DNA of 23,810 nucleotides, taken from Rozella allomycis CSF55 (taxonomy: Eukaryota; Rozellomycota). Within the stretch, counting starts at the first letter, position 1; the number at the start of each line of letters is the position of its first letter. The position numbers were made by a program, and so were the translations under genes. The notes under the pieces were generated by a model that worked only from the letters and a program-made list of their open reading frames with translations, was not told the origin of the DNA and did not search any database. Below are positions 896-23,810 of the stretch, in pieces. Location: assembly GCA_000442015.1 (NCBI GenBank), contig KE560886.1:1-23810 (forward strand), read 5' to 3'.

Positions 896-897
896 GT

Positions 898-3800
898 TTA
901 ATTAGAATCCAATTTTGATCTCTTTTGCTTTTTGAATGATGCAAGGGTATTTTCATATTCTTTTAATGAGTGTATAAACGATTGAATAATGACAGTCAAG
1001 TGGGACTCTTCATCCAATTCATCAACATCGATTTCCTTGTAATCTTTGACATCTTCCAATTCCTTGAAATTCATTTCTTTGTAATCTGTGAATATGGAAT
1101 GAAGAATGTTTAATAGAATCAATTTTGAATGAATGGGTAATTTAGATTTAACTAAATCCCTAAATTCCTTGTGAGTATTTGAAAAAGTCTTTTTGAATTT
1201 TATAAATTTAGGATCATCAATTGGAATATCGTCAATGATTTGCAATGTATTTTCATAACTATTTTGATAGATTGTTATTCTTGCTTTTTCAAGCCACTTC
1301 TTTAAGGAATTTACTATTCTATTAGACAGCAACAAAGATTCAACAACATCTATTTTATTTCCACCTTCATTTACATTATCACTATTTATTTCGCTCAATA
1401 GATGAGAAATTGAAATTGTTGGAATTATAGAATTTTCATTTGTAGATTCTAGAATGTATAGATCAGATTTATATTCAAGTAAATCTAAATCAGTTTCAAG
1501 ATCAAAGTCATCTTTAGGTAGGAGATGATTGTTCAAAGGTAAAGTATTTAAAGCAAAAATGACTTTTAATTGATTTAATCTTGAAATAAAAAAGTCTTCA
1601 TCATCTAAAGAATAATTGTATTGATTAAACCACGAGCCTAATTCATCATTATGCATCAATGATAGAAATTTACAAAGTGTACCAAGTTCTCTATTTAATC
1701 CATGATCATTCTCAGATATCCCATTTAAATGTTCAAAGAATAGAACATTATAAAGGGGATAAATGTGATTAAATAAAAGAGATTTTGTTACAATAAGATC
1801 AACCAAGCCACCCTTGTGTAGAGTTAATTGACAAAGAATCAATCTTTCTAATAAATAGATGACAGACAAAGGATCAAAATCTTCAAAATAATTATAATAA
1901 ATATCTTGTATGATGCGACTATATTGATTTGTGCAGCCAAGAACTCTGTAGAATAAGAGTTCTGGTCGAATCGTTGATTTGAGAATATCTGAAATTTTCT
2001 TGAATGAACTTTCCAAATTTTCATGAATTATTTTAAAGATGAAATAGCCGCTTTGAAAAGAATTATAAACCAACAATTGGTGGATTAAATAGAATGAAAA
2101 TTTTAATGGAAAAGATTTCATTCTTAAAACAATTGAACAAGAAGAAAGAAATTCAGATAAAATAAATTTAAATTGTTTTTGATTTGAAGATTGATTTAGA
2201 ACCAGGGTTGAATATTTTATCATTAGATTTGAAAAAGTTGAAATTAAATTAAAATGAAAATTATTTTCAATATCTGAAATGTCAGAAAATGTCAGAATGC
2301 AATTCTTCAATTTTAAAAGAATTTCCATTTGATCTACAAAACATTTTTCTTTAAAGAAATTATCCAACTCTTTTGTTAAATTAGATTTGTCTTGAATTTC
2401 ATTAGAAGTTTTTAAACTATCATTAGAAGCATTTACAGTAACAGTGTCACTACATGAGTCCTTTAAAGTATTAACATCACTTTGTTCATTAGACTTTGAA
2501 TTGCTAATATCCACTGGCGCACATTCATTGTTATTATTCAACGTATCTTTAACAGTAATTTCCTTACTCTCTTTATCTTCATTAACACTATTGAATTCAA
2601 CAATGTCGCTGCCTTCACTAGTCACATTGGAATCATTAGCATCATTAACTAGAACTGTATCACTACATTCAACAACTGTATCACTACAATCTTTGCTATC
2701 AACACCTTCAACAACTGTATCACTACATTCTTTAACGTCATTAGCAACATTAACAACAGTAACTTCTTCAACTTTAGCAACATTAACTTGTTTATTATCA
2801 TCTTTATCCACTTTAGCAACATTAACTTGTTTATTATCATCTTTAACAACTATATCATTAACAACTTTGGCTATTAACTCTCCATTAATCAATTCAACAT
2901 TGAAATTTATTAAAGCAAAGTATGAAATAATTTCACCGACAAATTTAGATTTAAAATTATTTGAAATTTTATTAATGCTTGTCAGAAAAGAAGATTTCTC
3001 TAAATTTTTAAAACTTTTGTTCAAATTTGAATGCCAACCATAAAGTTTAACATAATCTCCATTTTTATTAACATTCAAGAATCCAAAATTTCTGTAAAAT
3101 AAAATATTCTTGTGTTCATTAAATTGATCTGTCAACATTTTATTAATAAAATCAAAATATTCAAAATTAAACAATTTAAATGATTCACAAACATTAATAA
3201 AATCTTTAAATTTTGATTCTTTAATTAAATAGTAAATTCTTGTAAAAATAATCAATTTGAAATAAAGTGGATCTATTTTGGAAATTTCCAGATCTAACAT
3301 TTTCAATAATTCTAAAACATTCCTTTCAGTAAACAATCTACCAAAAACTTTATAATCTTTGTTTTTCAATATTTCATCAATTATCAAATTTTCATTATTT
3401 AAATCAAATTTAAATTGATAAATAGAATATGAACTAATTAAAGTCTTGAACATTAAATCTGGATAATCCTTTTTTAATTCAGAGCTTTTAGAAACAATCA
3501 TTGCAGCTCTTTCAATGTTATCAGCTTTATCCACTAAAAGATCAACACACAATCGTTTATTTCCTTTTTGTTCCAAATGATCAATGTAATTGTTTATATA
3601 ATCTTGGTTTTCATCCAACAATGAATAAATAAAATCTTTTTCTTTTATTTCATCAATCACTCTACCAGCTGACAAACCAGTAGTGATTTTAGCACTCCCT
3701 TCAACCTTTTCTTTAACATCTCCTTTCCCTTGAAGCTTTTCCCTTTCCACGCTTTCTCTTTGTAACCTTTCCTTGTCTCTCTTTTCCTTTTCTATTAAAT

Positions 3801-6800
3801 AATTGGCAATCTCTTTCAAAAATTGTAATTTCAATTCTTTATCAATAACTTTAAACTCATTTTGATGATTAACAATAATTTCAAAAGCTTTTTCATAACA
3901 CTTAGCATTTCTAAAACAAAGAAGAGAATTGTCGTAATCTTGAATTTTCAGAAACAAATTTCCAGCCTTAACAAAATCATCAGCATTGAAGAAACATTCA
4001 GCTGCCAATTTAAATTCATCAATTTTTTCAAATTCAATAGCAGCCTTCTTCAACAATGATTGTTTTTGATTTTTAGATAAGCTTTTGGATTCCAATTCAT
4101 AAATTTTAGCCTGACAATAAGAGATTTTATAGACATTATCAGTATTTTTAAAGCAATTCAAAGCTTGAACATACATTTCTTTATTAAAGAATTCATTGCC
4201 TTTTTTATTCCATTCACTGTCAGAACTTTTAACCGCCAAAGTGTAATTTTTATTTTCATATTCAGCCAATTTAAAATTTATTAATAGATTGAAAAAATAC
4301 AATGAATTTTCACTTGTATCAAAAAACACTAGAAGATTTTTAGCCCTGGTTATTCCAACATACAGAAATTTTAAATCATTAAAAAAAGTTGAATTATTTG
4401 AATGCTCAAAGTTAGAATTCTTTCCTTTAAAATAAGTATTCATTTTTTCAGCAAAATTTTCATTTAAATCTTCTTGAACAATTTTATCTAAAATTGTTAA
4501 ATATCGCCATTTATTCTCCAATAAAGAACTTTTAAAGAAATCGAAAATTACAACATCAGAAAATTCTAAACCTTTGGATTCAGTAATTGTTAAAACTTGA
4601 GCCTTTTTATTATTTTCTTCAAGAATTCTTTCCAATTCCTTCTTTTTGAATTCATCTTTAACAAGAATGACTTGATCAGCCCCAAGTGAATTAGAATCTC
4701 CATACAAATAGATCAAGAAATTCTCAATGTTTCTGTGATTTAATATTGTTGGTTTCATTGTAGAATTAATAGCTCCAACTTCATCCTCCAATTTATCAAT
4801 CTCAGATGGAAAAAAGAAATGAATTAATCTAGTTACGAAATTTCCTACTTTTAAAATGTTGGCTTGAGATCTAAAATTCTTCTTCAATTGAAACAAGTGC
4901 GGCAAAATAGACGAATTGTTGTAATCATTCTTATTATCAGCAATAAAATAATAAAACAAATCTTTAATTATTTCAAATTTAAATATATTTCCTTCAGTGA
5001 TACATTGAACTTGATCACCAGCCAATGTAAACAAGGTTTGATTATCTCTTCTCATCAATAATTTAATTAACGCCATTTGAATCGGCAATAAATCCTGGAT
5101 TTCATCAATGTAAATATAATCAAACACGGCTAAATTGTCATTTTGATGCAATTGATTAAACAAATGAAAACAAATATCTGAAATATCAAAATCTCCATTT
5201 TCATTTTTATTTTTTTCATACTTTAAATAAAGTTGATAAATTTGTTCATAATCTACCTTGTTCAATTTACTCCTCCTAGTCTCGCCCTGTTTAATATATT
5301 TTGACATTTCCAAACATCTTTTATTCTCAATTAAATTATTGAATGATCCTTTAATATAAAACATTATTTCATTAAAAATATTTAAAGCTTCTGATTTTGT
5401 CTTACCTTTGAAATATTTTCTATGAAATTTCTCAAATCCAACAAAATTGTTTTCAAATGATTTCAAGTTGTTTCTTTTTAATTTATTCACGCTACTTGCA
5501 TTTCCTTTACCAACGCTCATTCTCATTTTATACTTTTCATATTCCAATTCGTTCATCAACATTCTATCTTCACAAAATGAATCTAAATAGATCAATAACC
5601 GCTTAAAAGATAAGAATTTCGCATCAGATTCAATATTCATTTTCTTGATTTTATTAATCTTTGATATTTGCATTTCATATTCCTCTTTTACATTTCTGCA
5701 AAGGATTTCACTTGCAGTTAAAAATAATTGCTTTCCATTCAAGTGTGACTTGAAATTATTAAAACTGACACAAAGCAATCTCCTTGATATAACACTAGTT
5801 TTGCCCGTTCCACTTCTACCAACGATAATCAAATTCTTTTTGTATTTAACAATCTTATTTTCTGTATCTTCCAACAAGTAAGGCAACTCTTTATAATCTT
5901 CAAAGTTATTCTCCAATAGAAATTCCAACGCTTCTGAATTTAAGGAATAGATTTTGCAGCTCAGATTTGATTCTTTTGAATTAGTTAAATTGGCTTGTGC
6001 TTGATCCACACAGTCAAACCTTTTTATCCCTGTAGTCTCTGCCAAATCAAATCTGTTTGGATAAATTATTCTATTCTCATCCAAAACTAATTCACAAAAA
6101 CATAAATTCAAATATTTTATGCTAAATTTATTAATGTTCTTTTTAAAAATTTCAAATCCTTTATATATTTCAGTTCCACTGATTAAATCCAACACTTCCA
6201 GCACTTGAATTCTTTTATTCAAATCAACACCAATCGTCCAAACTATCTTTTTATTATCTCCAATGTCCTTCGCATAAAATATATTCCCTGCTTTATATTT
6301 TTCTTTTATCATTTCCACACTATTAATATATGGTCTGTTATTGATCCCGCCAAAATTTCCTCGTGTCAATCCAATAATGAAATTAATCGCATTTCTCTTG
6401 ATCAAGACTTGTTCTTTACTAATCTTCTTTAACGCATTGTCAACACTTCTCAAACTCCAAATTCCCTTCACATTTACCACTTTATTATTAATCAATTTCA
6501 TTATTTCAAATCTGTTTTCACTCTTCTCAATCTCTTGTATCATTAACCCATTCATCTTCTTGTTCCATAATTCTCTCAAATTAGCGGGAAAGGATTCATA
6601 TATTGTATTCATAGCAAAAAACGAACTCGTTGACATTACCATTCTCATCATATCCGTCCACAAATTAGACGATGAAAATGTATTCGCATCTCCAAACACC
6701 CATAATGCTCTTCTAGCTCTCGTTATAGCTACATTCATTCTCTGCGCATCCTCAACAAACCCAATCTCTTGCTGTGGATTAGATCTTGTCAATGACAATA

Positions 6801-8816
6801 TTATTATATCCCTCTCATGTCCCTGATATGCATCAACAGTCCCGACATCAATTTCCTTTTCAACGCCAATCATTCTCATTGCTTCTTTAAAATCACCCAT
6901 CTTTTCTTTAAATATTTCCACTTGATAACTGTATGGGCAGATTATGCTAATGGTGTCCTTTTCTTTTGGATAACAACTCACAAAATAAGACAAAAATGCT
7001 AAAATATGGTTTGCTTCAATTAAATTCCCCTTCGATCCGCTCAATGAACTATTTTCCATAGAATTGAAATGATTTATAAACATCAAAGGCTTGAAATACT
7101 TGGAGTCATACCACTCGCATTTATAATTCAACACCTTCTTCGAATTCTTCAATTCGTTATCATAGAATGCCTTAGATGCAAATTTCACAATGTCTTTGTG
7201 CATTCTAAATTGCTCTTTCAACATCACTACAGATTCGAATCCACTCCTTAACAATCTTTCAAAAAAGCTTGTCGCTCTTCCACTATCACGAATATCTTGA
7301 GATTTGCACAATCCTGGTAACTGCTTTTCATCTCCTACAAGTGTAATCGACTTGATTCCATTGCGCAATAAGCTTAGTATCTCCCATTCCAAGCATTGAC
7401 TGGCTTCATCCACAATCACCCGTCCACATTTTTCATTTATTAACCTTGAAGATAATGATGAACTCAAAGTACAAACATATATGGATGCTATTTAACGCTA
7501 AATAATTGAGGTACCATATTTTATGTAGTCTTTGGATATGTCAATATAGTCCTTCTTTTTACTGATCCTTGTTAATACATGTGATATATTCCACAAGTCA
7601 TACAACGATATTTCACCGTTTTCAAACTTTGTAATCGATTTTTTTATGCCATCAAATAGAGTTTTATGCTTAGTTATCACATTTTCATATCTCAAAATCT
7701 GCATTAGATTGTCCTCCATTGCTGCATACACATCATTTAAATTTTCATAATGTACAATACTGTCACGTTGAAGTAAATTCGTTATCAAGTCTGTCGCTAT
7801 CGTTATTGTTCGAAAATATTCATTTATTCTCTCTTCCAACAAATACGGTCTTGTATCAGCATTCATTAATTCGATCAAAGTATCATATCTTCCAACTAAC
7901 ACTATCTTGAACGGATCAATATTAAGCTCCCGGATGATTTTATTCAATAAACACACAACTGCGACATTTGTTTTGGCGGTAACCAAAATTGTTTCACCTG
8001 GAAAAAGATTTACTAGCCCTTCAATAATACCAACAATAGTTTGCGATTTTCCTGTTCCAGGAGGTCCCTTTACAAGCGAAATAGTGTTGCTATAATTAGC
8101 AACTACGGACATTTTATTGCCTCACGCTGCTCTTCATTCGCATTGTCGTATATTGCAGATTTAGATAATTCATAATTAATATGGTTCCGAGGTGCAACAA
8201 AAGGACTCTTGTAATGATCAACTCCATTCAAAACAATATTGCGTATGGAAGAAGGTATCAAATTTCTCTCGAACATCAAGGATCGTAAGAATCGAAAACC
8301 CGGACAAAAACCAGCTATTGGAAGCAAATATCCTTCCTTAAATTGGCGATAATTATCACTTTTGTACATTATTTCCAATTTAAACTGCACAATCACTTGG
8401 GCTTGGGCATCATCATTTGGAACTTGACGCTGGCCATATCCATAATTCTCTTGATCAATGATAAGAATGCCTATTATATGATTAGAAGTATAGAAATCTT
8501 CAAATCTCGCCACCCTTTCTTCTGATAGACAAACTAAATCCATATGCATGATCTCAGGCAACTCTTCGGAAAAAACAAAGCTTATCCTGGACTCATCCTC
8601 TCGCAACGAAAATGGAAAAGATTGACGATAAGTACTAGACTTGGACAAGTTTTCAACCACTTCAGTTCTCATTTCTTCTTTCACCAGAACAGACATGTAA
8701 TCACACATCCCTTTAATAGATCCATACTCATCATTCAAGATTTTCGCTCGATAGTCTTTTTTGCAAAATGCGGGTATTCCATCACGCAAAAAGTTAAAGA
8801 TTTTTTCCACAGTCAT
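898..8816 (-). CDS. Giant tandem SF1 helicase protein (UPF1/ZNFX1-like plus UvrD/TRANK1-like) with TPR-like region
   Basis: The reconstruction predicts about 2630 aa. The first module carries EEQREAIK, Walker A GPPGTGKS (8044-8067), motif II DEAS (7399-7410), GDEKQLP, EQFRM, DAYQGHERD and AITRARR, which fits the UPF1/SEN1/ZNFX1 group. The second carries GRSGTGKTS (near 5794-5820), DEIQD (5092-5106), AGDQVQ, NFRSQ, ESKGLEF and VGITRAKN, which fits UvrD-type helicases of the TRANK1 kind. A TPR-like stretch (NKKGNEFFNKEMYVQALNCF onward) follows, then a low-complexity linker and a long C-terminal region I do not recognise. The start is set at the first in-frame ATG (8816), but the frame is open further upstream. 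A 27-nt intron (7488-7514) joins KYG to ASIYVCTLSSS. A one-base frameshift at an A run near 8113-8116 separates EEQREAIK from MSVVANYSN. The last exon is 6590 nt with no visible intron. The substrate is unknown; the families suggest ATP-driven RNA or RNP remodelling. Confidence 0.8.
2644..2850 (-). repeat. In-frame tandem repeats coding a low-complexity linker
   Basis: A 36-bp sequence is repeated exactly at 2771-2806 and 2810-2845 (period 39 bp, 13 codons, coding DDNKQVNVAKV). Nearby (about 2650-2735) several copies of a unit coding CSDTVVE occur. The repeats lie in the helicase exon between the TPR-like part and the C-terminal region. They keep the frame and encode acidic, Val/Asn/Ser-rich sequence, probably a disordered spacer. 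Confidence 0.8.
7488..7514 (-). other. 27-nt intron of the helicase gene
   Basis: It starts GTACCTC and ends AAATAG on the minus strand and contains an in-frame TAG. Removing it joins AAATATG to CATCC and gives ASIYVCTLSSS, the motif that normally precedes the DEAS box in UPF1-like helicases. It is the only intron I could place in this gene. Confidence 0.85.
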
Positions 8817-13080: not shown

Positions 13081-13086
13081 TTTAAT
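13081..13086 (-). promoter_or_regulatory. ATTAAA five bases after the SR gene stop codon
   Basis: This variant poly(A) signal is on the minus strand at 13086-13081; the stop TAA is at 13094-13092. No perfect AATAAA is close by. Confidence 0.45.
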
Positions 13087-13091
13087 AATAT

Positions 13092-13693
13092 TTAAACAGA
13101 GGCCTCACTTGGAGAGCGGTTGCGGTTAAAACGTTCATTGGTTTCACTTGTGTTCTTTGGGCTTGCACTTCTTGAACGATCTCTTTCTTCACGTTCTGTT
13201 TTTCTCCCAGTGGATCTAGAACGAGATCTTTGAACCTCGAGCAAATTTTTTACCTTGGGCGATAGCGATCATCTCTTCTGTCATCTGTGTCTCTACGATG
13301 TCTATCCCTATCACGTCTGGGAGACCTTGAACGACTATTATGAAATTTAAAATATATTACCCTCTAAAGCTTCTTCTTGATGATGACGGGCATTTGGCAC
13401 TTACATGGCCAATACCATCACAGTTGTAGCACCTGAACTCACGTTTTCTACCCTTTGCCCATTCCACGTTTATTTTTTCTCCTTTTAGGTCAACATTATG
13501 ACATTTCTTGTAAGCTTCTTCAGCATCTTCATGCTGATCATACTCGATAAATGCATATCCTGCCTAAAACGGATGTCATTCTCATACCACGCAAAAGTTT
13601 TATCTTTATAATTTTTCCATATTTTCCAAATAACTCGTCCAAGTCTTTTTCCATTACTGAATCGTGCACACTCCCAACGAACAAAACTCTCAT
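13092..13693 (-). CDS. SR splicing factor with RRM, CCHC zinc knuckle and RS tail (4 exons, 173 aa)
   Basis: The exons are 13693-13588, 13559-13361, 13334-13254 and 13227-13092, with introns of 28, 26 and 26 nt; the sum is 522 nt. The N-terminal RRM has RNP2 as VLFVGSV and RNP1 as GYAFIEY, the latter formed only after removing intron 1. A zinc knuckle CYNCDGIGHVSAKC (C-x2-C-x4-H-x4-C) follows, then an arginine/serine tail (RSRSPRRDRDRHRRD, RSRSRSTGRK, RSRSASPK). This order is that of the SRSF7/9G8 and plant RSZ group, nuclear proteins that bind pre-mRNA and help define splice sites. It ends NRSPSEASV. In intron 1 the acceptor used is GGCAG at 28 nt; the earlier TTTAG at 24 nt would break RNP1. 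The exact orthologue within the SR family is not decided. Confidence 0.88.
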
Positions 13694-13970: not shown

Positions 13971-13973
13971 TCG

Positions 13974-14989
13974 TTATAGCTTTTTAAATTTTCCCTGTAA
14001 CCAAACTCTATGCATTTGTAATTTCCGTTTTCTATTAACTAGTAGACGAGTGTCAATTTTCAGATCCAATTTTTCAAAGTCGCCAAACAACTCTGAGACT
14101 TTTTCTTGTGTGAAGTAATAGACACAAGTTCCATCGCCTCTTACGTAAAAATCTTCATCCAGCAGTCTATCCTTTTTGAATCGTAATTGAGTGAGATCAT
14201 ACTTCCCGTAATCTCTGAATAGAATGACACCACCCGGTTTTAAAAGCCTAGCTAGTTTTGCAATAGCGATAGCCTGTCTATTCGGTGAAAGAGCTGATAA
14301 CACAAAAATAAGAGTAATGACATCAAGTGATTCCGGCTCTATTTCATCAATCGCAGCATCCAATGACAAATCATGTACAAAAGCATGACACTTTGATGGA
14401 TCATATTTTGCATTATTCTATTACAAAACAAATAAAAATATTACTTTTAAAACAGATACAGCTTGATGTGAAAAATCAAAAGCATAGAAAAAGTTGTCAT
14501 GCCCATCTTGTTTCATTTCGACTAACGGGAACAGGGTATTGCCAANGCCCATCTTGTTTCATGTCAATCAACGGGAACAGGGTATTTCCAACACCGCAAC
14601 CGGCTTCAAGAATTCTGCATGGTTTCTAATATTAAATAAATTGTATTGATACATTTTGAAACAGTTCTGGAAACTCTCTGGTTAGCCATTTTCTGTCTTT
14701 GAAAAATCTGTTTTCATGAACACTGTAAAATGCATCCCAAAAAGACGCAGATTTTTGTATAAAATCCACTTTTAATGTTTGAATAATTATTTTACATTTT
14801 TTCTCGTCGTTTACCGGATTTTCTTTTTGTTTGATGATGATTCTGTTCGCCTCTTCTATTTCTTCTTGTTTAAAGGTTACATTGTCCCTGAATGATGGAG
14901 ATTGTAAGAATATACCAAACGTTGTGATCGAAAACGTTTTCTAAATTTTCGAGTATTCTGTTTCCAAAAGGTTTTTCTTGTGGGACCAT
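13974..14989 (-). CDS. METTL2: METTL2-type tRNA N3-methylcytidine methyltransferase (4 exons, 295 aa)
   Basis: This SAM-dependent enzyme family (METTL2/METTL6/METTL8, yeast TRM140) makes m3C at position 32 of threonine or serine tRNAs. The exons are 14989-14916, 14887-14653, 14625-14445 and 14417-13974, with introns of 28, 27 and 27 nt. After removing the duplicated contig end the sum is 888 nt. Landmarks: PFGNRILENLENVFDHNVWD near the start, typical of METTL2 rather than METTL6; FWDAFYSVHENRFFKDRKWL and REFPEL; SAM-binding motif I ILEAGCGVGNTLFPL; ESLDVITLIFVLSALSPN; LKPGGVILFRDYG; FYVRGDGTCVYYF; and a final RVWLQGKFKKL. The ATG at 14989 (MVPQEKPFGNR) fits the family's N-terminus. No actin-binding extension like that of yeast ABP140 is present. 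Threonine-tRNA specificity is inferred from METTL2 likeness only. Confidence 0.88.
14501..14591. repeat. 45-bp imperfect duplication around the n at 14546 (unmerged contig ends, two alleles)
   Basis: 14501-14545 and 14547-14591 align without gaps with five differences. In the METTL2 frame one copy reads LFPLID and the other LFPLVE before MKQDG, and GGA/GGC is synonymous. Conservative changes suggest true haplotypes rather than read errors. Confidence 0.85.
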
Positions 14990-15122: not shown

Positions 15123-18100
15123 AAAATCTGCGCGAATTGTTGTAAATAGCCAACGCATCATTAATCTGCAAACAAAACCACTATTTAAAAAGAATAAAAA
15201 TAAATACATTAGCAGTGCTATGATCAGAGCAAGAAATAAATCTCTGCGCAAATTCAGGATGCCTAATTAACAAAACAATGCCATCAAACGTAGTTTTAAC
15301 AGCAATAAATACTAGAGGAGAAATTAAAAATAGTTTATACTGTCAAAAGGAATTTCCCATATTAATTTCAAGTTTCTTTCGGCCAAATAGATGATTCTTT
15401 GATTTGAAACAATAGCAATTGAATTATCTTCAGGAACATTAATATGAGCAACGTAAAAATCATTAATGTATTTTGAATGGGCGCATTCTTTCAGGAATGA
15501 CTGACCAATAGCGTCTCTTTCTGAAAAGGGTCTTAGAATTCTATCGTAAGCGATGAATCTTGGGAGTCTGATTCTTGACACTTCAAATTCATCGAATGCA
15601 ATAGTTGTATTTTTGATTCCCTCTGAAACATTACTAGCGAGATCAAAGACACCGACTATTGGTTTGGAAACTGCGCCCACTAGACCCTTGCCGATTCCTT
15701 TGAAGAAACCGCCAACGCCATCTTTGATTGCGCCCTGAGTTGGTTTTTCAATTAATCCAGTGACACCGCTTTTAATTGAAGAAGCGAATGATTTAGCACC
15801 CAGAGCAACACCATTGAAGACGTGTTTTGGTTTATTTCTTGATTTTGATTGTCTTCTTTTTTCTTGAAATTTAGAATCCAGAGTGACTACAGATAAACCT
15901 ATTAGGGTTAGTGATATGAAAATACCTTTTCCAACAGAGCCAGTAAACTTTGAGAATGCATCAGAGAGGCCATAAACAGTTTTATTTAAAAAGCTAGCAC
16001 CACCTACTTAATGGTTAAAAGTATTGAATACCTAGAATAATAATTTAAAAGCATTGAATACCTATAATCATCATTTAAAAGTAAGTATTACCTAGAATCA
16101 TATTTTATAAAAGTTGTAACCTTTAGCTAGACCAATACCAAAATCTTGAGGATTGTCAGAAACCAAACCTAGATAAGGTTCGTAAAAAGCGTNGATTATC
16201 AGAAACCAAACCAAGATAAGGTTCGTAAAAAGCGTCTTTAACAGCTGAAGAAAAAGTGTTGAATAAACCAACAGGATTACCTAATGAGAATAAAAGAATA
16301 ATTTGAATACCGAGAATGTCAGCAGAGCCTAAAAGTTTGTGAAACTGTAGAGTTAATTTAAGAGAATAGTATTCGAGGATTAGTTTGTAGAGTAAATCTT
16401 TTTGAATGATTGGATGTTCCATTATTAGAGCATTTAAAGTAATTGGAGCATTGTGAACATTCCCTTGTGAATAAGTTTAACTATATTTACCAATGGCCAT
16501 TGTTAGAGAATCTAGAATGAGAGAGAAAGGATTTCCTTTTTTAATCTTGTTTCCAGATCTAGAGAAAGAAAAGTTAATTTTGAGTGGATGTAATTGGAAT
16601 ACTTCAAAGTAGATTAATTGATTTGAAATATTTGAATTATTTTGAGTTGGAATTTTCAAATCTTTATTGAAGGGATTTTCAGTAGAAATTTTAGATTGAA
16701 AAGAAATAAAATCAAATAATTCATAAAGAAATCTACAGATTAAAAAAGAAAAAAAGATNAAAGAAATCTACAGATCAAAAAAGAAAAAAAGATTTACTTT
16801 TCATCTAATTCAATTGACATTTCTTGGAATAGAATACTGAAATATTTGAAATAATCAACACCGTGATTTTTATCTTTTGATTTAAAGATTGAACAAGAAA
16901 AGAAATTGAGTTCATCGTTTAAGTTTAAGCTTGTGGGATAAAAGATGATTGGTTGATCAAATCCATACAATTGATTATCAAATTGCAACCATTTTATTAA
17001 TAATTTTAAATTTAAATCAAAATCTGAATCTGAATATTCTAGAAATAAATCTTTTGCTGAAATTAAACCAATTTCAATTGAATTATTTATTAAAGAAACC
17101 AACAAATTAAATCTCAAAGTTAAAAGATGATTCACAACATAAGAAGAAAAGTTGGAAGAATTTGATTGAGAATGAGAAAGTGAAAGAGATTTAGATTTTG
17201 ATTTGGAAAGTGAAAATGGTTGAGCCAACGACAATGATTTACTAGACACATTCTGATTAAGAGTAGGTGTATTAGTTGTATAAGTTGTATTCTGATTAGA
17301 TACACTCTCTCTTCTCTCCCCCTTAACTTCCCCTCTTCTCTCTTTGATGGTGACTAGAGTGGTCTNCACCCCTTTCTTTGATGGTGACTAGAGTGGTCTC
17401 ATTTTGAGCTATAATGTCGGCATAAATTAAACAATCATTAAAATTGAAAGATTCAGTTAAACCAATTTCAGAAATATTTAATTCAAAATTCTTGTTGTTT
17501 CTTTTTAAAATTAATTTCTTTTCAATTGTTGAATTTTCCCAAATGTAATTTTCTTGTTGATTTTCATTCAAAGTAAAAATATTTGAACAATTCTTTTGAA
17601 AATATTTAAATTGAAATTTTGTTTGATTTATTAATTTAAATGGCCAATTAATAGAATGATTTATATTAACAAATAGAATGTTTGATTCACTCACTATATC
17701 TATTCTTATCAATTCATTATTCAAACTTAGAAATGTTTTTCCCAGATTTCTAAAATTAAACAACAATTGAGAGTGAGATGATTGAGAGAGAGAAGTAGTT
17801 GGTTGAGATGAAGTAGTAGTTGTTTGAGATGAAGTAGATGATGAAGTAGTTGAACTATCAGTGTTCATCCCTTCACCCTTACTTCTACCCCCTTCACCCT
17901 TCCCTTCATCACCTTTTAGTTCAATGATTGAATTGTTCACTTTCAGGTCAGAATGAAATGGAATTTGCTGATTCATTTTCAATTCATAAATGTTTTCATT
18001 TAAAGAACCAAATTGTTTAAATTTAATAGTCTTGTTTAATTGATTCACAATAATTATTTTTGGTGTCAATGTAACAATTGTAGATTTAAAATACTAGAAT

Positions 18101-21100
18101 AATCTATTAAACTATTTTACTTTGGTTATAGAGATTCCAATTGAATATTCAATTTGTTTATTTCTGTTTGGAATTAAAACATGATTTTCAATTGAATCAA
18201 AGTTTATTAATCTGCTCCAATCAGAGTCCATCACTTTTAAATAAACCTTATTAAAACTAGCCAACGTTATCTTTGAATTATTAAAGTTTGAATTATTAAA
18301 GTTTGAAGTGTATTGATAACTTCTTTCACCACTCTCATCATCTACTTCAGAGTCATACCAGTTGATGTTCTCTTCCTTGTATTTAATTAATAAACCAGTT
18401 TTATTCAAAATAACAAAAGGAGATGAAATGGAAACTCTTTTTGAAATCCCAAATTGATTTAAATTTTCATATTCAATTTTCAACTTTAAATTCTTGTTTC
18501 TAAAAGATAAATTATAATCAACTTCATTTCCATTTATTATAGCTTGACCTTGTTTAAATTCAGTTTCTAGAATATCAACCAAGATTGAAATTGTCTTTTT
18601 AATGTCAATTTGATTCATTGCATATTCTTCAACACTTTTAATAATCCCTCCAAATGCAAATGATTTTTCTTCTTCATAAATTTTATAATAAATATCAAAT
18701 GGTAAACAATTCTGAATTATTAAACAATTATAAATAGTAATAGTTAAACATGGGTATCTTTATAAATCATCAAATCTAATTTTACTCGAAATTTTCTACT
18801 TTGATTTCTAATTCAAATTTCAAATTTAATTTTTCATCTTTTAAATTTCTACATTCAATCAACATTGCACAATCTTTATTAAATTCTCTCCAATTGATTA
18901 TTTCATTGCAATATTCAATCCCTTCAATGTTTGGTCTCACTTTAATCACATTGTCATACAACAACATTGGATCAAACCCTCCACCATCTTCTGTTGCTAT
19001 TTTAGGGATAAAAGTAGAAATTACCAATTAATATTTTAGATTTTAAAAGTAAAGAAGCATCAAGTAACGTAGCTTCAAATGGAAGATTAGTTTTATTTCT
19101 TATTTGAATTGTTGATTCAAAGCAAACATTCTATTCAACTAGAAAATTTAAACTTTTACTTTGATATTCCCATCCACAAACACATTCACACACACCAAAT
19201 GTTTAGGGTTAGGGTTTAATAGGTTTGAAGTGTTTAAAGGGTTTAAAGGGGTTGAACTAGTGAATGAACTAGATGGACTTGTGGGCTCTCTTAATTCATT
19301 CCCCCTACTTATTGGCTCTCTCAATTCATTCATCTTTTCCTTTTCAACGTCTCGCTTCAAGGGATAGTATTTGGTTCCTTCCTTGTCAATTGGAATTTCA
19401 TTAATCTTTTTAAAATTATCCAATTTGATTGAAATCAACAATAATTGAATATTTCCCATTCTAGTTGAATCATTTAAATCTTTAAAATTAAATGGAATCT
19501 TTTCTCCATTTTTAATTAATCTCTTTTCATCTTTATTAAATAATTCAATTAAACAACCAGTCTTATTTATTATAACACATGGATACCCTTGTTTTCTCTT
19601 GTTTGGTTTCTTTTCTATTTGTTCAAAAATGTTTTTTATATTCTTCATGAATTGTTTATTAAGATTAACCATTAAATCATTCAATCCATTCAACTCATAA
19701 TTCATTGTTCCCTTGTTGTCTTTATTCACCTTGATTTGAGTCTTAAATGATTCAACCAATGGTTCCCAATGGGAATTGCTAGAATTGAAATAGTTCACAT
19801 TCATTTCAATCTCACTCTTCAACTTTAAATTCAAATTCCAATCTTTCACTTCCATTTGATGTTTATCAATCTTTATATCCAATATTGGCAACTGACATTC
19901 ACTAACATCATCAATCAACAGAAACTTTATTCCCTGACTATTCCATGTCAACAATTCACTCATCACAATCAATTCACTTGAATCCATCCAAGTAACATTA
20001 ACGTTCAAAGTATCACTATTAAGGTTTAAAGTAGTATTATTCAAAGTAGTAGTATCACTACTTGCACAAATTACTTCACCTTCACTACTTCTACCCCCAT
20101 CAACTTCAACTCCCCCTTCAATAAAGTTTGTTATAATTTTGTAAACCAATAAAATATCATGATAAGAAATTCTAAATACAATTGGCTTTGTATTCAACCA
20201 ATAATTAACACATTGATTCATTTGATCATTTTCTATCGTTAAAGATGCATCAAATTCATCAACAAATTTAAATAATTCTTTTTCATTCATATTCAACAAA
20301 AATAATCCAAAATTCTCAAAACTCAAACTTGAATTTCCTTTGGTTGAATACACAAACTGTTTCATCTTGATCAATATCGCTTCTGTCTCTTTATTCTTTA
20401 AATCTTCCAAAATAAACAATTCAAAGTTCACTACATTAACCAGAAAATAGAAAACAGAATTTGTATTGTTTTTTGACTGTGATTTAGAATTTGATTTAAC
20501 ATTTGATTTAAAAGTATTCCTTTGGGCTCCATTAGAACCTTTCAAATTCATTTCTACTTTATTATCTTTTTGGGGATAATTGTCAAGAAAAAATGATTTA
20601 ATTGAATAAATGTTATTTAAACTTGTAATCATTTTGGGACTATCAAGAGTTACTTTAACCATCCCATTCCCATTCTCTACCATTGTATACTGAATAAACA
20701 ATTGTCCATCTGAATATTCACTCTCTGGTATTATTTGTGTATAATATTGTTTAATACTTCTAGTATCATCCAACGAAAATGAATCAACCCAAACATCAAC
20801 CTGCATTTCTCCCCTGTCTCTCTTGAAATTCAAAACACTCTTGTTAATCTTAAACAAACAAAAATTCAAACATTTTCCATCTCTCAAATTGAACAATTCC
20901 AATTCTATCCCTTGCAATTCCACAACAATTTCATTAATCACTTTATCAGGTGTATTAAGATTTTGAAGAGCAAGAGTATTAAGAGTATTAGTTAAAGCAC
21001 TCCCCATCACTTGATCAGTCACTCCAGCAGTCACTTTACTATTCAATTCATCACTCCATTCACCCTCTACTCTCCCTTCTCCTTTCTCTCCAACTTCATC

Positions 21101-23810
21101 ACTAAATATCTCACTCGTTGAATCTATTAGATAAAAAACATTCTTCAACAACATTTCATACAAAAATTCATCCAATTCTACCTTCACTCGACTCACATTC
21201 CCCTTGACATACATTCTTGGTTCTTTATCATACTCAATTCCCAATTCAACATCAAAATCTTTCATAATCTTCTTTTTCCCATAAAATGTTTCTGCTTCCA
21301 CTTTAGCTGACTGAATCAAAATATTCAATTTCTTTTCATTCTCTTTAATCAACTTTAAATTTCCAAGATACGAAATTATTTTCCCATTTTCATCTTCAAT
21401 ATCTCTCACTTGCACTATTGGCGTTGACAAGTTGATTTCATAATTCATTTCACTCTCACTCTTTTCATTCTCAAGTGGAAATGATTTTATAAATTTCATC
21501 AATCGCTTTAAATCTTCATGACAATAAAATAAATGCAAAGAGCCTCCATTCAACTTTAGAAAATTATCAAAATATTCAAAACTCAACACATTCTTTCCCT
21601 TTAGAAATAAACCTTCATCTTTAGAATCATAAAGTTCATGTTCATTATATACTTTTTTTAAATTTGAATTAATACGCTTGATTTTGATCTCTTTTAGATT
21701 TCCAATAATTCCTTTATCAATTTGTAAATTTCCTTGTTCCAATTCAACACAAGAAAAACACTCTTCTCCATCAAACAACATAAACTTTATTCCCTCAAGC
21801 GATATCCACACATCCAATTCACTCTTATTATCACTTTTAACTGATTTTTTATTAATAAACGTCAAATTCAAATATTCCTGAAATTTCTTAATTACTCTGG
21901 GATCAACAGTCAAAGTAACTTTGGAAATAAACAGTTTTGCTTGTGGCTTTAAACCCATCAAATACTGCAAATTCATAAATTCATGCCGGCCTTTTTCTGA
22001 TTCAAAAACATTTTCTTCTTCTTTAATGTAAAATGAACCAAACTTTATTTCAACTTGAGACTCCATTTCTTTTTTAGAAAAATCAACGGAAAATGACTCT
22101 ACTCCAGTTTCACCTACATATAACAGAAATGGTGCATTTGATTCATTTAATTTTATCAATCTTTCATCGTCTTCTTCCTTATAAATGATGGCTTTCAATT
22201 TCTGAATTTTCAAAGTGAATTTCAAAATTTCCTTATCAATTACAGGGGTTTCTTCTGCATCATAAAAGACTTCTTCTTCTTTTTGATCATCCATTGATTC
22301 ATTCAAAGGAAAATAAATATCAAATAATTTTAACAATTTATTATATTTAACATTAGAAAATAAAAGATTAATTTCATCTGTGAAGGAGTCTATTAATATT
22401 CTAGTAACGGATGGAACGATTCCAATCTGAAGAATCATTTTTAAATTAACATTTGGAATAAACTGAAATTCTTTTCTATTAAAGTTATTTTCAAGATAAA
22501 ATTTGTTGAATGGAATGTAAAGCATTTCAAGTTTTGATAAATTTAAAATAAACTTGTCGTACATTAGTTTATTCAAATCTTCTTCATTCATTTCATTTTT
22601 ATTAATTAAGTCGCTTTTAACATTCAATCTTCCCAAGTCTGCTATAAACAATGAACTCTTTAAATCAGAAACATCAAATGGAAGAATTAAAAGTGGAGCA
22701 TTCAAATTCAATTTTAAATCAAAACTTTTATGTTCTTCCAATGCAAATTGCAAACCAGCCCTGGTCATCTTTATTATACCCTTGTTGGCGGCATTCACAA
22801 TTGCATCCAACGTTTCATTCGTTCCAATTCTTTTAAAAAAGTTTTGTAAAACATTTATTAATTTATAATTATAAACCAGCTTTAATGGCTCCATATCAAT
22901 CTGTAATGATTCATCCGCCTCTCCATGCAGCGGTTTATGTTGGTAATTCAACACAACAAATGGTTTATTCAACTCGGCAATATTTATAACATTTGATTCT
23001 AATCTCTTTGAATCAACGATAGTAGTCTTGCCTGAATGCCCATCAAATTTCCTTTCACATAAGCCGAAATCAAATTACTTTTCAACAATCAAAGGAAATA
23101 AAGTTCCAATCGTTCCATCTCTTATTGAAATATCTTCTAGCTTCATTAAAACATCAAATGAAGTTTGTCTTTAACAATTAAACCCAATTTTCTTACCTGG
23201 TCGAATATTTCATTTCAAGACCCTCAAATCTCGCATTTAAAAATTCTAATTTATTATTAATTAAACATAATGATCCACTCTTCAGATTAAATCTCAAATT
23301 TAGTAATACAGCATCTTTCGAAATTTCCCAATTCAATTCATTTTCATTAAATCCAATTGTTTCATACAAATTCTTCAAATCTTTATCAGCCTCTTCTTTT
23401 CTACTGGAATAAAAATATGAAAACCATCCACCGCTTACCTCTGGCTTCTTTTCCTTCTTTTCTCTCTCTCGTTGCTCTTTCCCTGCAATGCTCCTGTACA
23501 GTCTAATGTCTTCAATACTTAATATTCTTTCAAGTAACTCAATCTCCTGTTTATCCAAATCACTCATTTTATTATCCAACTTTTTATTAAACAAGGAAAC
23601 ATATTTTCTTCTTTCTTCTCTTCTCTTTTCAAAATACTTCCAACTCCACTTTTCATTTCTTTCTCTTATAGACTTTTTCACACAAGAAATAGCAAATCTC
23701 CACCACTCTTTAGCATTTGTTTTCACTATGGAATTCATCGGTCTCATTGATTGAAATCTCTCTCTTCTTTTCAATCGATCAAATAAATCCATCAATAATT
23801 GAAAATCAAC
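15121..23810 (-). CDS. VPS13: VPS13, bridge-like lipid transfer protein (N-terminus outside window)
   Basis: VPS13 proteins form long hydrophobic grooves that move phospholipids in bulk between organelle membranes. Exons in the window: 23810-23197, 23168-23079, 23051-19160, 19130-19025, 18996-18786, 18757-18121, 18093-16798, about 16767-16491, 16463-16121, 16003-15341, 15311-15208 and 15180-15121. The introns are 27-30 nt apart from the four-unit array at 16004-16120. With three duplicated contig ends removed the exons sum to 8181 nt (2726 aa), in frame from the window edge. Landmarks: AKEWWRFAI and NDVLLNLRF-like N-terminal repeats, PFVVLNYQHKPLH, the VAB region (PCVIINKTGCLIELFN, IIQNCLPFDIYYKI, PFVILNKTG, LIVTLTPKIIIVNQ-type segments), YFEVFQLHPLKINFSF, LGSADILG, NPVGLFNTFSSAVKDAFYEP, KGGASFLNKTVYGLSDAFSK and a C-terminal domain ending WFCLQINDALAIYNNSRRF. 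Roughly the first 200 residues, including the chorein start, lie right of the window. Ser/Thr-rich linkers are at about 17150-17330 and 17770-17930. Confidence 0.93.
16004..16120 (-). other. Four-unit tandem intron array in VPS13 (29+30+30+28 nt)
   Basis: In transcript order the units are 16120-16092 (GTTACAACTT...GATTCTAG), 16091-16062 (GTAATACTTA...GATTATAG), 16061-16032 (GTATTCAATG...TATTCTAG) and 16031-16004 (GTATTCAATA...TTAAGTAG). Each begins GT, ends TAG, has an inner CTTTTAAA-like core (TTTTATAAAA in the first) and is the size of a single intron in this genome. Units 2 and 3 match at 22 of 30 positions; units 3 and 4 match at 16 of their first 17. Removing all 117 nt joins AAAG to GTGGTGCT and restores LAKGGASFLNKTVYG, the conserved VPS13 sequence. 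Keeping unit 1 or 2 puts a stop in frame. Splicing as one 117-nt intron or stepwise cannot be told apart from DNA. Confidence 0.85.
16151..16235. repeat. 42-bp near-identical duplication around the n at 16193 (unmerged contig ends)
   Basis: 16151-16192 and 16194-16235 differ at two sites, both synonymous in the VPS13 frame (GAC/GAT Asp and CTA/CTT Leu). It duplicates the segment coding AFYEPYLGLVSDN. Confidence 0.88.
16725..16793. repeat. 34-bp duplication around the n at 16759 spanning a VPS13 intron
   Basis: 16725-16758 and 16760-16793 differ at one base. The complete intron is 16768-16797 (30 nt, GTAAATC...CTGTAG). The left copy repeats most of that intron and eight exon bases, so the true gene has only one. 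Confidence 0.88.
17341..17399. repeat. 25-bp exact duplication around the n at 17366
   Basis: 17341-17365 and 17375-17399 are identical; the eight bases between the n and the second copy are poor contig-end sequence. Merging the copies restores NETTLVTIKER running into RGEVKGERRESV in VPS13. Confidence 0.88.

What the first reader, a model, noticed from the sequence alone, without database searches (positions are those of the whole stretch)
16004..16120. Tandemly multiplied ultrashort intron in VPS13: four GT...TAG units with zero-length exons between them
Seen: four head-to-tail related units of 29, 30, 30 and 28 nt sit where conserved VPS13 coding sequence needs a single splice. Every unit has its own donor, acceptor and normal length, and each junction is TAG|GT. 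Inference: removing the first unit leaves the exon against the next unit's GT, so the array could be spliced stepwise, each step on a standard intron. As one intron it would be 117 nt, nearly four times the longest other intron here. A spliceosome tuned to 26-30 nt may need the recursive route. The array may also be a birth stage of introns by tandem duplication. I do not know of a described four-fold intron array of this kind.
Basis: partly seen in the sequence, partly recalled or inferred. Interest (0 to 1): 0.9.

Follow-up and report, generated by a model that had tools for sequence, protein, structure and literature searches.

The report
Tandem arrays of ultrashort introns
A parasitic fungus (Rozella) carries, at many places inside essential genes, rows of two to twelve tiny introns placed end to end with nothing between them, which suggests that its splicing machinery takes out long interruptions in steps of about 29 letters.

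Summary
At 16120-16004 (minus strand) four GT...TAG units of 29, 30, 30 and 28 nt abut with TAG|GT junctions inside VPS13. Removing all 117 nt gives a conserved protein join without a gap. The window matches Rozella allomycis CSF55.

It is not a one-off. In the 9.97-Mb genome, TAGGTA-to-TAGGTA distances form a comb: 185, 6, 84, 9 and 45 hits at periods 15-45, 39-49, 53-63, 66-78 and 82-94. Gene models on 13 segments gave 37 arrays of 2-12 units, in genes including TOP2, MTR4, glycogen debranching enzyme and dynein. Single introns are 26-30 nt in 193 of 211 predictions.

Where two junctions lie two units apart, the middle AG|GT is intact in at least 80 of 84 cases, against roughly 8-29% expected if unused. 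This argues that internal sites are used, so stepwise removal is the best explanation. It is not shown: no RNA was available.

Unexpected: first units are richer in G over C than last units in 36 of 37 arrays. A specific hairpin was tested and not supported.

The parts
16092..16120 (-). Array unit 1, 29 nt, GTTACA...TCTAG (unusual GTT donor)
16062..16091 (-). Array unit 2, 30 nt, GTAATA...TATAG
16032..16061 (-). Array unit 3, 30 nt, GTATTC...TCTAG
16004..16031 (-). Array unit 4, 28 nt, GTATTC...AAGTAG; acceptor TAG gives the gap-free protein join (the other assembly's model P0001 has one extra valine, as if it used ..TTAAG)
16281..16310 (-). Single 30-nt intron without stop codon, upstream of the array (LG|NPVG join, as in P0001 and the homologues); placed by eye, not by the gene finder
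15899..15925 (-). Single 27-nt intron without stop codon, downstream; kept as IFISLTLIG in the P0001 model but absent from all 7 homologues aligned
15312..15340 (-). Single 29-nt intron of VPS13 (predicted)
16464..16490 (-). Single 27-nt intron of VPS13 (predicted; P0001 has the same join)
16768..16797 (-). Single 30-nt intron of VPS13, read by eye; the N join at 16759 repeats its 3' part, so the gene finder drew it as 65 nt
18094..18120 (-). Single 27-nt intron of VPS13 (predicted)
18758..18785 (-). Single 28-nt intron of VPS13 (predicted)
18997..19024 (-). Single 28-nt intron of VPS13 (predicted)
19131..19159 (-). Single 29-nt intron of VPS13 (predicted)
23052..23078 (-). Single 27-nt intron of VPS13 (predicted)
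23169..23196 (-). Single 28-nt intron of VPS13 (predicted)
15327..16003 (-). VPS13 coding stretch after the array, C-terminal part (Pfam VPS13_C)
16151..16235 (-). Two near-copies of 43 nt around the N at 16193: unmerged scaffold join, not biology

Best explanation
The 117-nt stretch is one member of a genome-wide class of tandem intron arrays in Rozella allomycis. Each unit is a complete ultrashort spliceosomal intron (GT...AG, mostly 27-31 nt), and zero-length exons (AG|GT) separate the units. SHOWN from sequence: the arrays exist in many genes; their removal restores conserved proteins where this was checked; their spacing is quantised; their internal junctions are retained far above the neutral expectation; neighbouring units are related copies. 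INFERRED: a spliceosome adapted to introns of about 26-30 nt recognises each unit by intron definition and removes the array one unit at a time. The order does not matter, because each removal leaves AG|GT again and so a shorter array of the same kind. The arrays probably arose by local tandem duplication of an intron within an AG|G(T) exon site (slippage or unequal exchange between repeated TAG|GT junctions). They are tolerated because every added unit is self-removing. The G-to-C compositional polarity is real but unexplained; keeping splice sites free of local structure is the best partial reason found.
For: Array exact, with conserved protein join. Spacing comb of TAGGTA pairs: 91 of the first 100 listed of 185 at period 26-31 where a flat spread over 15-45 predicts 19; 6, 84, 9 and 45 hits at periods 39-49, 53-63, 66-78 and 82-94; with A or T first, 191 at the two-unit spacing 53-63 against 49 at 67-77. 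Triple-junction pattern 90 against 8 for the reversed pattern, merging to 49 loci on 28 contigs. 37 arrays in 13 segments; of 82 introns modelled there, 43 single, 37 arrays, 2 long undivided that I judge doubtful by eye. Junctions at conserved sites: MTR4 KG|RVACEISS, TOP2 DQ|DHDGSHI and YYK|GLGTS, dynein LT|RLAA and F|RFAIEH, debranching enzyme AA|GLPHF and PL|GMKTLDPSD. A TOP2 protein model on a different contig (P0145) reads FVGSNN across another array. Single introns 26-30 nt in 193 of 211. Middle AG|GT intact in at least 80 of 84. Adjacent-unit identity 0.66 against 0.54 between arrays.
Against: No RNA, lariat or intermediate was seen, so one-step removal is not excluded. Retention of internal sites could partly reflect turnover by recent duplication; for 31 unit pairs in fetched arrays the neutral expectation is 9.1 intact, 29%, higher than from average divergence. 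In the 200-kb sample the gene finder also proposed 83 undivided introns of 20-298 nt; I think most are leaps across gene boundaries but did not verify this, so free-standing introns above 31 nt are not excluded. VPS13 unit 1 has a rare GTT donor. The G-to-C polarity is not predicted by simple stepwise removal. The arrays were found by patterns or models that favour AG|GT junctions; only the middle-junction test avoids this, and its 84 cases overlap within arrays. Eleven of the 37 arrays lie within 200 nt of an assembly N, so their unit numbers are uncertain.
Confidence: 0.72

Rival explanations
1. Each array is one long intron removed in a single reaction with the first donor and last acceptor; internal GT and AG are fossils of the duplications, and RNA folding of the G-rich 5' half onto the C-rich 3' half brings the ends together.
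For: First unit has the higher G minus C in 36 of 37 arrays, 25 of 26 without a nearby N, and the trend holds in 13 of 14 further contigs. Predicted pairs link the two halves more often than in shuffles, 0.71 against 0.50. The ends are a little closer in the predicted fold than in shuffles, 18.6 steps against 20.9 and 20.0.
Against: Fold energies are no lower than shuffles (mean z 0.06 and 0.12 over 38 arrays). Left and right halves of one array do not match better than halves of different arrays (local score 5.78 against 5.99; duplex -13.97 against -11.51, lower in 20 of 36, p 0.23). Internal AG|GT intact in at least 80 of 84. Only 2 of 82 modelled introns in the array segments are long and undivided, and both look doubtful.
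Confidence: 0.18
2. Assembly artefact: unmerged read overlaps stacked as repeats.
For: N joins in this window are flanked by near-copies, one at 16193 close to the array; N's lie inside a few arrays elsewhere.
Against: The three join copies that TRF reports match at 84-95%, while VPS13 unit cores are 57-70% alike and units end exactly at splice sites. 26 of 37 arrays have no N within 200 nt. Protein models on other, short contigs of the same organism begin or join at arrays (P0001, P0145).
Confidence: 0.03
3. The units are copies of a dispersed mobile intron family (introner-like) that keeps inserting into AG|GT.
For: Arrays sit in AG|G sites: A at -2 and G at -1 in 32 and 33 of 37, downstream G in 31 of 37, against 23, 24 and 21 of 43 for single introns. 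Insertion of GT...AG into AG|GT recreates the site at both ends. A few 6-mers recur in 5' units of different arrays, such as GTTGAA in 9 of 68 against 1 of 211 single introns.
Against: Units of different arrays are hardly more alike (0.54) than unrelated single introns (0.52), while neighbours are (0.66).
Confidence: 0.07

Closest known systems
Recursive splicing at zero-length exons / ratchet points (Drosophila; background seen in passages of PMC2773006)
   Same: Combined acceptor-donor AG|GT sites; stepwise removal proposed
   Different: There, combined sites subdivide large introns. Here 57-340-nt stretches are filled completely by complete introns of mostly 27-31 nt whose neighbours are copies of one another.
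Stwintrons and complex intervening sequences (Hypoxylaceae, PMC9024468, passages and section 15; Lipomyces, PMC7138796, abstract and part 1 of section 6)
   Same: Fungal complex intervening sequences made of several U2 introns and excised consecutively; in Hypoxylon 'overwhelmingly' by consecutive reactions
   Different: There, one intron is nested in or abuts the donor of another. Here 2-12 introns lie head to tail and none interrupts another. The Hypoxylon paper notes that AG upstream together with GT downstream was not found among its 117 stwintrons.
Intron gain by tandem duplication or repeat expansion (Cryptococcus CNN00420, passages of PMC2395259; potato case PMC4974935, search listing only)
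   Same: Introns multiplied by local DNA duplication
   Different: [quoted passage not shown] Here the repeat is the intron alone and the spacers are zero.
Introners (PMC9860276, search listing and start of abstract only)
   Same: Multiplication of introns inside one genome
   Different: No clear dispersed family similarity between arrays found.

Membership tests
Spliceosomal (GT-AG) introns | GT...AG ends, interrupt coding sequence, removal restores the conserved protein | tested here: met
   for the junctions checked
Spliceosomal (GT-AG) introns | Branched lariat intermediate | not testable with these tools
   no RNA data
Recursive splicing | Zero-length exon: acceptor immediately followed by a donor | tested here: met
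   Sequence feature AG|GT at the junctions; function not tested
Recursive splicing | Intron removed in successive segments | not testable with these tools
   only indirect: internal AG|GT intact in at least 80 of 84
Recursive splicing | Occurs in introns much longer than usual for the genome | tested here: met
   57-340 nt against 26-30 nt in 193 of 211 single introns, though absolute lengths are tiny
Stwintron | Internal intron interrupts donor, branch or acceptor element of an external intron | tested here: not met
   Units abut; none interrupts another's ends; branch points were not mapped
Introner | High similarity between copies at many different loci | tested here: not met
   0.54 between arrays against 0.52 between single introns
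Intron gain by tandem duplication | Neighbouring introns are copies of one another | tested here: met
   Adjacent cores 0.66; best adjacent identity above 0.7 in 23 of 37 arrays
Hairpin-bridged intron | Array-specific pairing of 5' and 3' ends beyond composition | tested here: not met

The most novel reading that the evidence does not exclude
Rozella's spliceosome has a hard upper limit near 31 nt. Any longer intervening sequence can persist only as a whole number of complete introns, so introns in this genome are quantised. They grow by adding self-removing units, and a 5'-G to 3'-C composition gradient acts as an ordering or accessibility code for stepwise removal. This would be a distinct intron architecture and a visible birth route for new introns.
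Probability: 0.35. Interest if true: 0.93.

Novelty: new variant of a known kind. Interest (0 to 1): 0.86.

Why it matters
It would show recursive splicing pushed to its limit: introns of about the smallest size, stacked without exons, in essential genes of an early-branching fungal parasite. It makes two old questions testable in one organism: what sets maximum intron length for a spliceosome, and how introns multiply. Arrays of different unit number and divergence are natural intermediates of intron growth, and each predicts countable lariats and intermediates. It would also matter for annotation: gene finders that assume one intron per gap can misplace or break models at these places.

Tried and rejected
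Hairpin idea: prompted by the G-to-C polarity, tested by MFE against two kinds of shuffle, by left-right complementarity inside against between arrays, and by local structure. Local structure was slightly weaker than in unit-order permutations (p 0.036, 25 of 35) and than in shuffles (p 0.017, 24 of 35). Splice-site accessibility was higher than in shuffles (0.525 against 0.482) but not than in permutations (0.531). A specific hairpin is rejected on these tests; avoidance of local structure is only weakly supported.

Exon composition as the source of the polarity: 60-nt flanks up 0.109, down 0.082, p 0.14, n 31, not supported. Polarity between halves of single introns: none seen. Adjacent pairs in contigs not fetched: skew falls in 24, rises in 10, ties in 6 of 40; summed by contig it falls in 13 of 14. 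For that count offered 42 strings; I left out C160:11976 (looks like a coding repeat) and one of two identical C158 strings.

First gene-finder versions fused genes or read minus-strand loci in the wrong orientation; I kept from them only the length peak and the window's intron coordinates. The finder charges extra for undivided introns outside its unit range (23-33 or 23-34 nt), which favours units. My parse FNSS in TOP2 was wrong: P0145 reads FVGSNN there. Two of the 37 arrays (C101:153590-153706 and 153728-153811) sit at a join and look like unmerged copies of the YYK|GLGTS region. P0001 keeps a 27-nt stretch that homologues lack, so that model is probably ab initio and is not evidence of actual splicing. 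The tool's reversed-pattern control is uninformative for the TAGGTA and WAGGTA pair searches: its totals (172, 49, 65, 72, 59, 361, 327) exceed the hits in five of the seven, I think because the reversed word is common in coding sequence; I relied on the spacing comb instead. The homologous-protein search with the debranching enzyme piece returned 6 proteins at its threshold, none named Rozella. Rfam found nothing in the window. A search of phage records found nothing. Literature: the listings, and the passages or sections, held no description of such arrays that I saw; the Rozella genome paper itself is not held.

Full report
IDENTITY AND SETTING. A 226-residue piece downstream of the array is 100% identical to a protein of Rozella allomycis CSF55 on a 2,783-bp contig (P0001). 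The window is therefore that fungus, in a different assembly (contig C79, 23,810 bp, of a 9.97-Mb genome in 213 contigs). The gene is VPS13 (Pfam VPS13_M and VPS13_C), on the minus strand. That the other assembly is from single cells is recalled; one paper that used single-cell libraries of R. allomycis was seen in passages (PMC6784888).

THE OBSERVATION. The 117-nt stretch splits exactly into four GT...TAG units of 29, 30, 30 and 28 nt. Unit cores are 57-70% identical pairwise. Left in place it has in-frame stops. Removed with the final TAG as acceptor, it gives LAK|GGASF, which aligns without a gap to 7 metagenomic VPS13 homologues; P0001's model adds one valine, as if it used the AAG three bases earlier. 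Around it lie 11 single introns of 27-30 nt, two of them placed by eye. The N at 16193 with its two 43-nt near-copies is a join artefact, since P0001 has the stretch once.

SINGLE INTRONS AS YARDSTICK. Inside 23-33 nt it had no length preference; outside it charged a small penalty. An earlier run with a flat length prior over 18-420 nt already peaked there (133 of 365 at 26-30, the rest spread thinly). Donors are GTA in 206 of 211. In this sample the VPS13 array was the only chain of units; decoy junctions shifted by 1, 2 or 3 nt gave none and by 4 nt one. The same run proposed 83 undivided longer or shorter introns spread over 20-298 nt, which I take to be mostly leaps across gene boundaries but did not verify.

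GENOME-WIDE. Three TAGGT words at intron spacing: 90 matches against 8 for the reversed pattern, merging to 49 loci on 28 contigs, of which two look by eye like coding repeats. The distance between TAGGTA words forms a comb: 185 hits at periods 15-45, of which the first 100 are listed and 91 of these fall at 26-31; 6 at 39-49; 84 at 53-63; 9 at 66-78; 45 at 82-94. Allowing A or T first: 191 at 53-63 against 49 at 67-77. The tool's reversed control is not informative for these pairs; it exceeds the hits in five of the seven searches.

ARRAYS IN CONSERVED GENES. I modelled 13 segments: those held as loci (its first 30 places, without the C98 repeat and without the window) plus two further stretches chosen for their long arrays. 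They gave 37 arrays of 2-12 units: fourteen of four, eleven of three, six of five, three of six, two of two, one of twelve. Sequence comparison with solved structures places junctions in conserved stretches: MTR4 (array B gap-free, array A with a one-residue gap), TOP2 (DQ|DHDGSHI and YYK|GLGTS gap-free), a dynein heavy chain (LT|RLAA, after what I recall as a P-loop, and F|RFAIEH, gap-free), debranching enzyme (AA|GLPHF and PL|GMKTLDPSD gap-free, NK|GKPATPRD with one-residue gaps). Other gene names (HYDIN-like, Sec7-like, proteasome subunit-like) are by eye. A TOP2 model from another contig of the organism starts exactly after one array, reads FVGSNN across a second, and ends with residues that read into the donor of a third (P0145). 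Of 82 introns modelled in these segments, 43 are single, 37 arrays, and 2 long and undivided (102 and 86 nt), both doubtful by eye.

ARE INTERNAL SITES USED? The pattern fixes two junctions two units apart and says nothing about the one between. That middle junction is an intact AG|GT in at least 80 of 84: 77 by coincidence, one, two; four are undetermined. If internal sites were idle, four bases would all survive in about 8-19% at the average unit divergence, or 29% (9.1 of 31) from the actual unit pairs in fetched arrays. Matches overlap within arrays, so the 84 are not independent, and turnover by recent duplication could inflate retention. I take this as the main evidence for stepwise removal, with narrow single-intron length as the reason it would be needed.

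ORIGIN. Adjacent units are 0.66 identical in their cores, non-adjacent units of the same array 0.53, units of different arrays 0.54, single introns 0.52. So copies arise next to their source. Arrays sit in AG|G sites more strictly than single introns of the same segments, which means each exon edge looks like an internal junction. A duplication bounded by AG|GT adds a unit without touching the protein.

POLARITY. From first to last unit, G falls from 0.212 to 0.054 and C rises from 0.067 to 0.188; the first unit has the higher G minus C in 36 of 37 arrays, in 25 of 26 with no N within 200 nt. In contigs examined only through one search's strings, adjacent pairs fall in 24, rise in 10 and tie in 6 of 40, and the sum falls in 13 of 14 contigs. 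Exon flanks and single introns do not show it. Composition is close to reverse-complement symmetric, which suggested a hairpin, but fold energies equal shuffles and halves do not match their own partners significantly better than others. Order and composition do reduce local structure slightly. I leave the direction of the gradient unexplained. VPS13 itself shows it only weakly.

VERDICT. The finding is real, larger than claimed, and not found described in the searches made (the Rozella genome paper is not held). It works like recursive splicing with zero-length exons; membership in that class needs RNA. It is not a stwintron, because no unit interrupts another's ends, and not an introner family on the evidence here.

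Noticed in passing
Arrays on C28, C31, C39, C65, C66, C68, C82, C87, C93, C101, C139, C183 (L002-L031, L052, L053): Strong 5'-G to 3'-C composition polarity along intron arrays, 36 of 37, not shared by exon flanks or single introns.
   Followed up: yes
window 481, 13883, 14546, 16193, 16759, 17366: Single N's flanked by near-identical repeats (three show in TRF with periods 35, 43 and 46; the others by eye): scaffold joins with unmerged overlaps; they duplicate coding sequence and in one case an intron end (16793-16723).
   Followed up: partly
window 15000-24000: GC skew on the VPS13 coding strand runs from strongly G-rich in the 5' part to C-rich near 16-17 kb; the neighbouring helicase-like gene shows a similar decline towards its 3' end.
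   Followed up: no
C139:35204-35543 (L052): The longest array modelled, 12 units, in an unidentified coiled-coil gene; exon join not verified by homology.
   Followed up: partly
G000 C28, C31, C39, C65, C68, C82, C87, C152, C183: Several arrays lie within 10 kb of contig ends, possibly because arrays break assemblies; enrichment not tested.
   Followed up: no
C101:19572-21581 and C93:53913-58816: HYDIN-like genes (name by eye, not by search) carry five modelled arrays in each stretch, so arrays cluster strongly by gene.
   Followed up: partly
window 13973-14989, 13081-13693, 897-8816 (minus strand): By eye: a methyltransferase-like gene, an RNA-binding protein with an RS-rich tail and a CCHC knuckle, and a large helicase-like gene; predicted introns mostly 23-28 nt, besides one of 52 nt.
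   Followed up: no
P0056 (1357 aa, unnamed source): TOP2 63% identical to Rozella's, the top-scoring hit; possibly a relative from environmental DNA in which array positions could be compared.
   Followed up: no
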